Shown: positions 17,170-20,900 of the stretch, piece after piece
Numbering within the stretch: the first letter of the stretch is position 1
Layout of the letters: the number at the start of each line of letters is the position of its first letter
Source of the DNA: a virus
IMG/VR virus record: IMGVR_UViG_3300020119_000109
Span: 1 to 38,112 of that record
Length of the DNA: 38,112 nucleotides
Reading direction: 5' to 3' (one strand)
Translations under genes and position numbers: made by a program
Notes under the pieces: generated by a model
What the model saw: only the letters and a program-made list of their open reading frames with translations
Databases searched by the model: none
Told to the model about the DNA's origin: nothing

Positions 17170-17554
17170 CTGGCTTCCGTCCGGTGTAGTCCTTGATGAT
17201 CGCGACGATCGGGCCGCCGCCTTCGCCCATGTGTTGCAGCTTCACGCCGTACTTCTTCGGCTTCATCTTCTGTGCCTGCTCGACGCGTGCGTAGATGCGC
17301 AGCTTGGCCTTGCGGATCGAATCGGCGTCGGGCTTGCAGTTGTCGGCGATCTCGACGATCTCGTCGACCATGGTGTCAGCGCGCTCGTCCGTGGCAATCT
17401 CGTACATCTTGACGAACTCTGGATATTCGCGCAGCCAGCGGAACACGGTGGCCTTACTGGGCATGCCGGGCTTTTTGCACACCTTGCGGATGCTGCTGCC
17501 GTCTGCGAGGGCCGCGCAGAACTCGGCTGCCTTCTCGTCGGTGTAGGTGGTCAT
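17156..17554 (-). CDS. terS: Terminase small subunit
   Basis: 132 residues. Residues 5-50 form a helix-turn-helix typical of small terminases (AAEFCAALADGSSIRKVC, then SKATVFRWLREYPEFVKMYE). Next is a helical oligomerisation region with RADTMVDEIVEIAD, and then AKLRIYARVEQAQKMKPKKY. It would recognise the pac site and hand DNA to the large subunit. The ATG overlaps the upstream stop as ATGA. Position immediately before terL supports the call. Confidence 0.88.
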   Translation of the reverse strand: MTTYTDEKAAEFCAALADGSSIRKVCKKPGMPSKATVFRWLREYPEFVKMYEIATDERADTMVDEIVEIADNCKPDADSIRKAKLRIYARVEQAQKMKPKKYGVKLQHMGEGGGPIVAIIKDYTGRKPDGTD

Positions 17555-18135
17555 TTCTCTACCTTCTTGATGAATCCGTGCTTCACATTATGGCGGTACT
17601 GGTCATCCTTCGACATGGCGATGGCCGTATTCGATATCCACGTTCCATCCGGCGCGAACGAACCATATGCCACACCGATCCGGAGAGCTGGCTCGAAATC
17701 CACATGCAGCTCCAGCATGTCGATGCCATTGCCGCAGTTCATATCTAGCGCGCTGGCCACCTCGACGGCGCGGCGCGCGTCATAGCCCAGGTACATCGCA
17801 GCGCTGGCAAACGGCGAGCCGCTGCCGACGGCATAGAACTTTTCCTCGACGGGGATGCCGAATGGTTCTTGCGAGAAGTGCACGATCTTCCCATCCGGAT
17901 GAATCACGAGCAGGCTGCCGCACTTGTCGTCATTGCGCTGCGATACAGGATAGTCTTCTGGGATACAGCCTTTCTCGAACCAGTTGAGCATCGCGCGCCC
18001 AAGCGCAGATCCGCCGGCGAAGCCAACCAGGCAGCCCCGAATTTTGGTGATCTTCGTGACGGTAGCGTGCTCCGCGCCGAAGCCCATGCGTTTGTCGGCG
18101 GCCATGGTCTTGCCGTCCCATGCGATGACAGTCAC
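17551..18135 (-). CDS. Proteasome-like Ntn-hydrolase family protein
   Basis: 194 residues from a GTG overlapping the upstream stop (GTGA). The N-terminus (TVIAWDGKTMAADKR) places Thr2 where removal of Met would expose an N-terminal nucleophile. Asp14 and Lys28 are candidate active-site partners. CLVGFAGG and FYAVGSGSPFASAAM, followed by a helix, are typical of beta-subunit-like proteins (HslV/proteasome fold). The fold usually ends near residue 142; the last 50 residues or so are an added tail. There is no partner ATPase in the window. It lies between a small membrane gene and terS. Family call is from motif pattern; protease activity is unproven. Confidence 0.72.
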   Translation of the reverse strand: MTVIAWDGKTMAADKRMGFGAEHATVTKITKIRGCLVGFAGGSALGRAMLNWFEKGCIPEDYPVSQRNDDKCGSLLVIHPDGKIVHFSQEPFGIPVEEKFYAVGSGSPFASAAMYLGYDARRAVEVASALDMNCGNGIDMLELHVDFEPALRIGVAYGSFAPDGTWISNTAIAMSKDDQYRHNVKHGFIKKVEK

Positions 18136-19222: not shown

Positions 19223-19930
19223 TCAGGCGTCTTGCGGCGCGCCCATTGCCTCTCGTGCAAACTTCACTTGCAAGAGTGATAACCGCTTGTCCCCGAGCTT
19301 TTCGCGTTCGAGGATGCGGCGCGCCCATGCGCGGTGGTCGATTGCGCTGGCGGCCTGCTTCGTCACGACAGTGGCCTTGAGCTTGCGGAGCAGCTGGTCA
19401 GCGGACTCGCGCGACAGCTTCTCGGCGCCGGGCATGCCGAGCTGCAGCATCGGGCGCGGGATCTCGGCCCATTCACCTCGCTCAAGCTGGGCGTGCAGCG
19501 CGGCTTCCCAGCGCGGCTTGATCTGGCTGTAGGTCTGGCTGCCCAGGTCGAATGCCAGCGGCATGGCCGCCCAGTAGACGGCTGGATGCGACCACTTCCC
19601 TGGCTCGCCGGCGGCGCGGGCCTGCACACCGGCCACGGCCTCGTAGTAGGCGACCAGGCTGTCGATCGGGCTACGGCAGAGCTTCTTGAACTCGGGCAGG
19701 GTGGGCGGCCAGTCGCGCGTGCTCAGCGCGTCCAGTCCGCGCTTGAGCTCGGCGGCGGTGTAGCTGGCCAGTTCCTGCGACCAGAAGGCGATCAGCGCGT
19801 CGGTGTCGGCAGCGCCCCACTGGTCGGCGAATTTCTTGCCGTAGGTGAGCAGCATCCGCTGGAACAGGCGCTCGACCCAGCTCTCAGGCAGGGCGGTCGT
19901 TGATGTCGATGATTCGGTCGTCAGGTTCAT
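19223..19930 (-). CDS. Replication protein P-like (helicase loader)
   Basis: 235 residues, like lambda P (233). The N-terminal half matches the family pattern: WVERLFQRMLLTYGKKFADQ, then ALIAFWSQELASYTAAELKRG, and RDWPPTLPEFKKLC. The C-terminal half is basic and helical. Lambda P brings the host replicative helicase to O at the origin. The ATG at 19930 overlaps the end of the O-like gene by 47 bases; longer in-frame extensions run deeper into that gene. Position after O supports the role. Confidence 0.75.
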   Translation of the reverse strand: MNLTTESSTSTTALPESWVERLFQRMLLTYGKKFADQWGAADTDALIAFWSQELASYTAAELKRGLDALSTRDWPPTLPEFKKLCRSPIDSLVAYYEAVAGVQARAAGEPGKWSHPAVYWAAMPLAFDLGSQTYSQIKPRWEAALHAQLERGEWAEIPRPMLQLGMPGAEKLSRESADQLLRKLKATVVTKQAASAIDHRAWARRILEREKLGDKRLSLLQVKFAREAMGAPQDA

Positions 19931-20900
19931 GGCTGGACTTTCGTTGGATACGGTCGGTGAGCTTCTGGGCGTTGGCCTGCAGGGCTTGGCGTGGGGATGC
20001 GCGTGGCTGAGCAGCACCGGTGGCCTTGACGGCAGCCGCTTCACGGGCCCAGCGTTCGAGGATTGCGATCACGAGACCAGGCGGGATTCGTTCGCCGGGC
20101 TTCGCGCGCTTTGCTTCCTCGCAGGCGGCGGTGACTGTTTCTGGCTGCACGCCCTGGTCGGCCAATGCCATGACGCGAGGGTCGGCGGGCTGGGCCATCA
20201 CGCCACTGGCTCGCATGGCGATGCAGAGCGCGCCCACCGCGCTTGGGGTGGGTGAGTCGTCAGGGGCGGGGTTGGAGCCTTTAGGTTCTAAAGAATCTAA
20301 CTTATCCCTTATAAAGTATCCCTTGCGATCGGGGGGCGATGCATTCGGATCATCGGGGGGCGATTCGGGGGGCGATGGGTTTTGATCGGGGGGCGATCCT
20401 GCCGCGATGATTAGAACGGCCTTCTTCTTCAACGTTTTTGATTGAGGCGCGAGCGCGCGCAGCATGTCGCAGGCAGCGATTACACGCTCCCGAATCCCGG
20501 CTGTTTCGATCTCGATGCCCCAGCGCTTGGCATTGCCAGCGGAGCCGGACAGACTGAACGCCAGCTTCTCGATCCAGGCTTCGAGTACCTTCTCGGCGAC
20601 CACCGGGTGATAGAGGCGGCCGTCGCTGGCCTCGACCCAGCCGCGCAGCGCGTGCGCGCGGACCTTCTTCCAGGCCTTCGACTGCGACAGGTGCGCCAGC
20701 ATGCGGTCGTCGGTTGGTACGCTGCCGGCCGGAACCTGGCGCCAGCTTTCGAGCCAGAGCGTCATCGCGGCGGCACGTTCGTCGCCGGTACCGAGAACCC
20801 AGGTCTCGGACGCCAGCAGGCGTGCCACATCCATCGGCATGAACTGGAAGTCCCGCAGGTTGCAGTCTGCTGGGGTCAGCGGTGCCGGAAGCTCTGTCAC
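19884..20900 (-). CDS. Replication initiator, lambda O-like in architecture (DUF1376-type N-terminus)
   Basis: 338 residues from a GTG overlapping the upstream stop (GTGA). Residues 15-105 (FQFMPMDVARLLASE, then LWLESWRQVPAGSVPTDDRM, then AHALRGWVEASDGRLYHPVV) fit the DUF1376 type found in phage initiators. Residues about 165-200 are a Ser/Pro/Asp linker encoded by DNA repeats that look like an origin. Residues 245-338 form a second helical domain, possibly for contact with the P-like protein. The plan of DNA-binding domain, iteron-coding linker and partner domain is that of lambda O. Confidence 0.8.
   Translation of the reverse strand: MTELPAPLTPADCNLRDFQFMPMDVARLLASETWVLGTGDERAAAMTLWLESWRQVPAGSVPTDDRMLAHLSQSKAWKKVRAHALRGWVEASDGRLYHPVVAEKVLEAWIEKLAFSLSGSAGNAKRWGIEIETAGIRERVIAACDMLRALAPQSKTLKKKAVLIIAAGSPPDQNPSPPESPPDDPNASPPDRKGYFIRDKLDSLEPKGSNPAPDDSPTPSAVGALCIAMRASGVMAQPADPRVMALADQGVQPETVTAACEEAKRAKPGERIPPGLVIAILERWAREAAAVKATGAAQPRASPRQALQANAQKLTDRIQRKSSHEPDDRIIDINDRPA
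20279..20397. other. Candidate replication origin: four iterons plus AT-rich stretch
   Basis: Four exact copies of TCGGGGGGCGAT lie at 20329-20340, 20353-20364, 20365-20376 and 20386-20397, all in one orientation. Next to them, 20279-20322 is markedly AT-rich in an otherwise GC-rich genome. Both are inside the initiator gene. In lambda the origin is likewise inside O, with four iterons followed by an AT-rich unwinding region. In gene direction the order here is the same. Confidence 0.75.

What the first reader, a model, noticed from the sequence alone, without database searches (positions are those of the whole stretch)
20279..20397. Iteron origin inside the initiator gene, lambda-like layout with unrelated sequence
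Four exact 12-bp G-rich repeats plus a sharp AT-rich patch lie inside the coding sequence for a Ser/Pro/Asp linker. The order of iterons then AT-rich DNA along the gene copies lambda ori, although the DUF1376-type initiator is not an obvious O homologue. The run of six G in each iteron is unusual.
Basis: partly seen in the sequence, partly recalled or inferred. Interest (0 to 1): 0.68.

Follow-up and report, generated by a model that had tools for sequence, protein, structure and literature searches.

The report
Phage replication origin inside initiator gene
A temperate phage very probably carries its DNA-replication start site inside the gene for the protein that recognises it, as phage lambda does but with an unrelated DNA-binding domain of 'unknown function', and dozens of related phages show that the binding sites are kept as DNA signals whatever amino acids they happen to encode.

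Summary
Four exact copies of TCGGGGGGCGAT (coding strand ATCGCCCCCCGA) lie at 20329-20397 and a 29%-GC patch at 20280-20324, inside a minus-strand DUF1376 gene (19884-20900) followed by a lambda P-like helicase-loader gene. Comparison supports an in-gene origin. (1) A paired copy of the 12-mer occurs in 38 IMG/VR contigs, all in initiator-like genes; a reversed-sequence control pair hit once. (2) It is read in all three codon phases and both orientations, so it is selected as DNA, not peptide: 98 exact copies inside initiator genes, none in 490 kb of flanks. (3) The iteron type follows the ~55-residue arm after the DUF1376 winged helix, not the helix itself or the C-terminal domain. L006 and L007 keep this phage's C-domain and loader but have other N-domains and repeats. 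(4) After the repeats most relatives have a purine-rich short tandem, commonly (GGGACA/GGGAGA)n; this window has an AT-rich patch there. Layout matches ori-lambda/O-P and the pSK41 RepA_N plasmid origin, but the protein is not an O-family member. Binding and replication are untested. New variant of a known kind; confidence about 0.85.

The parts
19884..20900 (-). Initiator gene, 338 aa, GTG start: DUF1376 winged helix + arm + disordered linker + helical C-domain
   Evidence: ORF; Pfam DUF1376 6e-9; PHROGs 'replication protein' 2e-34 and 'primosomal protein' 8e-27; AF2 model mean pLDDT 86
20589..20843 (-). DUF1376 domain (residues 20-104), winged-helix-like
20397..20576 (-). Arm (residues about 109-168) with GNAKRW and APQSKTLKKK motifs; inferred iteron-specificity determinant
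   Evidence: iteron type tracks this segment; predicted helices at high pLDDT
20386..20397 (-). Iteron 1, ATCGCCCCCCGA on coding strand
20365..20376 (-). Iteron 2
20353..20364 (-). Iteron 3, head to tail with iteron 2
20329..20340 (-). Iteron 4, followed by the GATCGCAA block shared with many relatives
20280..20324 (-). AT-rich patch, inferred strand-opening element; holds two AAGGGATA copies; sits where relatives carry purine-rich short tandems
   Evidence: 29% GC; position of tracts in relatives
19935..20243 (-). C-terminal helical domain (residues about 220-322), inferred contact to the helicase loader
   Evidence: 58% identical in L006/L007, which also share the loader gene (52%)
19223..19930 (-). 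Lambda P-like helicase loader, probable ATG start at 19930
   Evidence: phrog_109 'P-like helicase loader' 5e-15; lambda P itself hits phrog_109 at 2e-98

Best explanation
The stretch 20280-20397 is the phage's theta-type replication origin, built into the coding sequence of its own initiator. The initiator's N-terminal part (DUF1376 winged helix plus the GNAKRW arm) binds the four 12-bp iterons, whose ends are dyad-symmetric (ATCG...CGA[T]) around a C-run. The assembly opens the adjacent AT-rich patch. The C-terminal domain then hands over to the lambda P-like loader encoded by the next gene, which brings host DnaB. The disordered SPPD linker exists because the DNA that encodes it must serve as origin. 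Shown here: the anatomy, DNA-level selection on the repeats, their confinement to initiator genes, co-inheritance with the N-terminal arm, and the loader gene next door. Inferred: binding, melting, loader recruitment, and that replication starts here.
For: (a) Codon-level null: 0 of 20,000 synonymous redraws give any 12-mer four times. (b) The 12-mer pair searched blind in IMG/VR gives 38 contigs, against 1 for a reversed-sequence control. The DUF1376 N-domain was found beside the repeats in 31 of them by tblastn; L024, L035, L042 and L047 are cut by the edge of held sequence but keep the same linker, and L022, L023 and L049 are other initiator-like genes with the same iteron-then-tandem order. 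(c) In 85 distinct genes, 100 exact copies fall in codon phases 0/1/2 = 27/4/56 plus 13 in reverse orientation, encoding IAPR, RPP, SPPD/E or SGGD. (d) 98 copies inside initiator genes, 0 outside in 490,510 bases of flanks. (e) At matched winged-helix identity of 60-75%, partners with a similar arm share the iteron in 96% of pairs and partners without it in 0 of 569. (f) L006 and L007 share C-domain and P-like loader (52%) with the window but have different N-domains and different repeats. (g) All 41 carriers have lower GC just after the last iteron than in the whole gene; the gene-wide purine maximum lies in the linker in 78 of 85. [quoted passage not shown]
Against: No binding, melting or replication data. 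The arm and the iterons are adjacent on the DNA, so part of their association could be simple linkage. The AT-rich patch is not conserved as AT-rich DNA in relatives. Foldseek found no significant solved structure for the initiator, so the DNA-binding role of the N-domain is inferred. One P. aeruginosa relative (L076) keeps only one 1-mismatch copy in the linker, so the array is not always present. Cumulative GC skew shows no turn at 20.3 kb.
Confidence: 0.85

Rival explanations
1. The repeats are binding sites of the initiator but serve autoregulation, copy control or blocking of transcription; the replication start lies elsewhere.
For: Sites for an initiator inside its own operon could equally repress it, and sequence alone shows binding-site-like conservation, not origin activity.
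Against: The array is mid-gene, 500 bp downstream of the start codon, not at a promoter; it is followed by a lower-GC or purine-rich tract in all 41 carriers; no larger repeat cluster exists elsewhere in the window; the layout equals the proven lambda and pSK41 origins.
Confidence: 0.08
2. Low-complexity protein repeat: the SPPD/E motif is a linker peptide and the DNA repeat is a by-product of recent duplication or slippage.
For: In the window all four copies are in one codon phase; linkers are often repetitive; the purine tandem does vary in copy number between close relatives (L075, L008 and L076).
Against: Relatives keep the same 12-mer in other phases and on the other strand, giving IAPR, RPP or SGGD; codon null rejected; copies stay exact across genes whose N-domains differ by 25-50%.
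Confidence: 0.02
3. A host-directed motif (Chi-like, packaging or uptake signal) that happens to be clustered here.
For: Short exact GC-rich repeats are typical of such signals (general knowledge).
Against: No copies elsewhere in the 38-kb window or in 490 kb of flanks of relatives. In bacterial genomes the pair is rare: 12 loci in 84,980 species, 5 in prophage initiator genes and 7 in unrelated GC tandem repeats.
Confidence: 0.02

Closest known systems
ori-lambda inside gene O, with the O and P proteins (lambdoid phages)
   Same: Four iterons in the middle of the initiator gene (spacing 20-24 bp in lambda); opening tract directly downstream in the gene; order DNA-binding N-domain, linker, C-domain; next gene a P-family helicase loader; strand-asymmetric purine-rich tract after the last iteron (PMC7466680)
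   Different: Initiator is DUF1376, not Phage_rep_O; iterons are 12 bp with a C/G-run instead of about 18 bp; tandem iterons at 12-bp spacing; in relatives iterons can be reversed or mixed in orientation, and the tract is often a GGGACA-type tandem rather than AT-rich
RepA_N plasmids (pSK41) and the chimeric pPR9 initiator
   Same: Origin boxes centrally in rep; linker dispensable as protein; in pPR9 the N-domain and origin region were exchanged together for a phage-type helix-turn-helix (PMC5703833), the same kind of cassette exchange seen here
   Different: No RepA_N domain in the window protein; plasmids of staphylococci and other Firmicutes
Rac prophage YdaU/YdaV of E. coli K-12 (racR-ydaS-ydaT-ydaU-ydaV)
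   Same: DUF1376 protein followed by a loader gene; a YdaS/Cro-like gene upstream as in the window; iteron-like repeats (about CAGATGTTCAAA, spacing 33, 33, 12) and a purine-rich tract in the ydaU linker; Rac has an active origin, oriJ (PMC3945230)
   Different: Repeat sequence and arm unrelated; loader is DnaC-like; that oriJ lies in ydaU is my inference, not a result found in the literature searched
Burkholderia phage BgManors32 and Pseudomonas phages Alize, Ostro, CF60a
   Same: N-domain 65-69% identical and the same iteron in the linker; annotated only as hypothetical or primosomal protein
   Different: Different C-domains and, in Ostro and CF60a, a primase or primase/helicase gene next door instead of a P-like loader

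Membership tests
Lambda-type origin/initiator module (ori-lambda, O, P) | Iterons inside the initiator's own coding sequence | tested here: met
Lambda-type origin/initiator module (ori-lambda, O, P) | AT-rich opening tract next to the iterons | tested here: met
   29% GC at 20280-20324; relatives have a purine-rich tandem there instead
Lambda-type origin/initiator module (ori-lambda, O, P) | P-family helicase loader encoded next to the initiator | tested here: met
   phrog_109 E=5e-15, same PHROG as lambda P
Lambda-type origin/initiator module (ori-lambda, O, P) | Initiator binds iterons, unwinds DNA, recruits the loader | not testable with these tools
   needs biochemistry
Lambda O protein family (PF04492 / O-like PHROGs) | Phage_rep_O sequence profile | tested here: not met
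   window protein reaches the Pfam cut-off for DUF1376 only and no O-like PHROG; hhalign of the 7-sequence N-domain profile with O: probability 0.1%; lambda O hits PF04492 at 6e-36
Lambda O protein family (PF04492 / O-like PHROGs) | Same N-domain fold as lambda O | tested here: inconclusive
   no significant PDB match; one 'lambda O N-terminal domain' BFVD hit at E=0.7
DUF1376 (PF07120) | Profile score above the curated cut-off | tested here: met
   36.5 bits against 30.1
RepA_N plasmid initiators | RepA_N domain | tested here: not met
   no Pfam RepA_N hit at E up to 0.1
Iteron-type origin | Direct repeats conserved as DNA and co-varying with the initiator's DNA-binding region | tested here: met
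Iteron-type origin | Supports autonomous replication with its initiator | not testable with these tools
   needs a mini-replicon experiment

The most novel reading that the evidence does not exclude
Iteron specificity in this large group of phage initiators is carried by a short transferable arm (GNxKRW type) rather than by the winged helix. The unit 'arm + iterons + purine tandem' moves as one origin cassette between unrelated winged-helix families (DUF1376, DUF6291 and others), and the purine tandem (GGGACA/GGGAGA and 5-mers) is a distinct kind of strand-opening or primosome-loading element, not an AT-rich one.
Probability: 0.35. Interest if true: 0.65.

Novelty: new variant of a known kind. 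Interest (0 to 1): 0.52.

Why it matters
DUF1376 is a 'domain of unknown function', and its phage members are mostly annotated as hypothetical or primosomal proteins. This comparison assigns many of them a concrete job, initiator with a built-in origin, and gives a rule to locate the origin in a genome: look in the linker between arm and C-domain. It shows how phages could change origin specificity without changing loader compatibility, by swapping the N-domain plus iterons as one piece, and gives a testable code linking arm sequence to iteron sequence. It also makes a precise prediction for a long-known origin, oriJ of the E. coli Rac prophage.

Tried and rejected
Peptide-repeat explanation: rejected by codon phases, orientation and codon null. 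Motif of the whole genome: rejected, no copies elsewhere. Lambda O homology of the N-domain: not found by Pfam, PHROGs or hhalign; fold search inconclusive, with no significant PDB match and a list of low-Z helical bundles. My first idea that the (GGGACA)n tandem is read in all three frames came partly from a mis-framed gene (phage D14L). Correctly framed it is read mainly as QG/EG and, in phi297-like genes, as TG, with 5-bp tandems in L017, L020 and L123, so only the weaker statement is kept. A link between C-domain type and downstream gene type across all loci was not clean because the automatic downstream ORF choice was poor; only L006, L007 and L055 are used. The search for related loci in genome contigs with the single protein found nothing. 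Cumulative GC skew gives no origin signal. No paper in the held library links DUF1376 to replication initiation, and no held paper gave a map position for oriJ. A direct hhalign of the N-domain profile with YdaU was weak, so their kinship rests on the shared Pfam family and shared PHROG.

Full report
WHAT IS IN THE SEQUENCE. On the minus strand, ORF 20900-19884 encodes a 338-residue protein. Inside it lie four exact 12-mers, ATCGCCCCCCGA on the coding strand, at 20386-20397, 20365-20376, 20353-20364 and 20329-20340. They are followed in the gene's direction by a 29%-GC stretch, 20280-20324, in a 63%-GC genome. There is no exact or one-mismatch copy elsewhere in the window.

CHANCE. A whole-window shuffle is a poor null because the repeats are coding. 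I therefore kept the protein and redrew codons from this phage's own usage: in 20,000 draws no 12-mer in the linker occurred four times (38 draws reached three) and the iteron itself never exceeded one copy. The chance that all four SPP motifs use TCG-CCC-CCC is about 3e-8.

THE GENES. The protein has DUF1376 (PF07120, E=6e-9, above the cut-off) and matches PHROG families named replication protein and primosomal protein. The AlphaFold2 model (43 sequences, mean pLDDT 86) shows a confident N-terminal unit of residues 1-168 (winged-helix-like part, then helices that I call the arm), a poorly predicted linker at about 170-220, and a confident helical C-domain at about 220-322. The arm ends at base 20397, exactly where the first iteron begins; the iterons and the AT patch encode the linker. 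The next gene (19223-19930) belongs to phrog_109, the lambda P helicase-loader family. A gp49/66-family gene and RusA follow, and a YdaS/Cro-like gene lies upstream. Other genes (portal, coat, RecT, integrase) make the window a temperate tailed phage; it is an IMG/VR record.

RELATIVES: THE REPEAT IS CONSERVED AS DNA. Searching IMG/VR with the bare DNA pattern of two iterons within 30 bp gave 38 contigs; the same pattern with the 12-mer written backwards gave one, not an initiator gene. Of the 38, 31 have the DUF1376 N-domain beside the repeats by tblastn. L024, L035, L042 and L047 are cut by the edge of held sequence but keep the same linker. L022, L023 and L049 are other initiator-like genes in which the same iterons are again followed by a short tandem; Pfam names L023/L143 DUF6291 and L049 DUF1376, and gives no informative family for L022. 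Collecting the family by profile gave 128 loci and 85 distinct usable genes, of which 43 carry this iteron. The 12-mer occurs in codon phases 0, 1 and 2 (27, 4 and 56 exact copies) and reversed (13 copies, for example L033, L048, L051, L090 and L093), so it encodes IAPR, RPP, SPPD/E or SGGD as the frame dictates. In a slightly stricter gene set, exact copies number 98 inside initiator genes and none in 490,510 bases of flanks. In 84,980 bacterial and archaeal genomes the pair occurs at 12 loci, 5 of them prophage initiator genes and 7 unrelated GC tandem repeats, so the pair is strongly, not absolutely, diagnostic outside viruses.

WHAT THE ITERON GOES WITH. Relatives with other arms have other repeats in the same place: TCCCGNYGGGA-like (L107, L118, L135, L017), TGTAGACG-like (L124, L125, L128, L131, L132), TGTCAC(A/G)-like (L015, L122, L126, L130, L136, L137) and others. 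Taking genes with the window's iteron and binning partners by winged-helix identity, partners with a similar arm (60 bits or more) share the iteron in 96-98% of pairs; partners without a similar arm (under 45 bits) share it in 0 of 569 pairs at 60-75% helix identity and 0 of 714 at 45-60%. L093 (helix 51%, arm 85 bits) has it; L094 (helix 72%, arm unrelated) does not. A blind search with a second iteron, ATCCCGGTGGGA, found two contigs, both DUF1376 initiators with the SSxAGNAKRW arm. The pairs are not independent, and arm and iterons are adjacent, so linkage contributes; but the absence of the window's iteron beside an unrelated arm argues for functional coupling. The C-domain does not track the iteron: the C-cluster of the window, L033 and L055 also holds L128 with another iteron. 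L006 and L007 have the window's C-domain (58%) and a 52%-identical P-like loader but quite different N-domains and repeats. This is the same cassette logic described for plasmid pPR9, where N-domain plus origin were replaced together (PMC5703833).

THE TRACT AFTER THE ITERONS. In many relatives the last iteron runs into GATCGCAA and then a purine-rich short tandem on the coding strand, mostly (GGGACA)n or (GGGAGA)n, sometimes 5-bp units. The gene-wide purine maximum lies in the linker region in 78 of 85 genes (the interval is 41% of gene length), and in all 41 iteron carriers the 60 bases after the last iteron have lower GC than the gene. The window replaces the tandem by AT-rich DNA that still holds AAGGGATA twice. 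Lambda shows a comparable purine-rich, AT-rich tract after its iterons. I infer a strand-opening or loading element; nothing here shows it.

HOW IT WORKS, MOST LIKELY. The initiator's N-terminal unit binds the iterons (dyad-symmetric ends ATCG/CGAT, consistent with tolerance for both orientations), the neighbouring tract opens, and the C-domain passes the site to the P-like loader, which delivers DnaB. This is the lambda scheme with a different DNA-binding module. Binding, opening and start-site use are inferred.

IS IT LAMBDA O? By layout and partner gene it works like ori-lambda with O and P; by sequence it is not a Phage_rep_O protein, and the fold comparison was inconclusive. In-gene origins are established for lambdoid phages (PMC7466680) and pSK41 plasmids (PMC5703833), so the finding is a new variant of a known kind. 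I found no paper linking DUF1376 to replication initiation in the held library.

E. COLI RAC. ydaU, the DUF1376 gene of the Rac prophage, has iteron-like repeats (spacing 33, 33, 12) and a purine-rich tract in its linker, followed by a DnaC-like loader gene; in some relatives the sequence after that tract switches. Rac has an active origin, oriJ (PMC3945230). That oriJ is this linker is a prediction.

Noticed in passing
E. coli K-12 NC_000913.3 about 1421470-1421620 (L138:5472-5620): Linker of Rac ydaU (DUF1376) holds repeats CAGATGTTCAAA-like at spacing 33, 33 and 12, then a purine-rich tract; a candidate location for oriJ.
   Followed up: partly
L001 start / L010 end (Burkholderia phage BgManors32, OK665842.1): The circular record is broken inside this initiator gene and about 70-78 bp of the gene is duplicated at the junction, so the gene is not annotated; probably an assembly artefact.
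   Followed up: partly
window 17551-18135 (-): HslV/proteasome-subunit-like peptidase gene (phrog_1040 E=2e-35, Pfam Proteasome E=1e-5) just downstream of the replication genes.
   Followed up: no
L076 versus L008 and L075 (Pseudomonas phages): A deletion between direct repeats removed most of the iteron array in L076; (CAGGGA)n copy number also varies between close relatives.
   Followed up: no
L107, L118, L117, L135, L134, L017, L234: A second arm subtype (SSxAGNAKRW) goes with palindromic TCCCGNYGGGA iterons, spacing 21-22 bp where measured.
   Followed up: partly
L098, L100, L101, L119, L127, L129: A short arm (SKKGNSKRWG) goes with GATCCCTAAAGGA-like sequences and then GGGACAGGGAGAGGGACAG directly; the array is much shortened.
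   Followed up: no
relatives with (GGGACA)4 or more, e.g. L103, L094, L108: The coding strand has four or more GGG runs 3 bases apart, a canonical G-quadruplex motif, next to the putative origin.
   Followed up: no
L142, L145, L146, L147, L149: Same GC-run 12-mer in unrelated bacterial tandem repeats (12- to 42-bp units); no link to replication seen.
   Followed up: no
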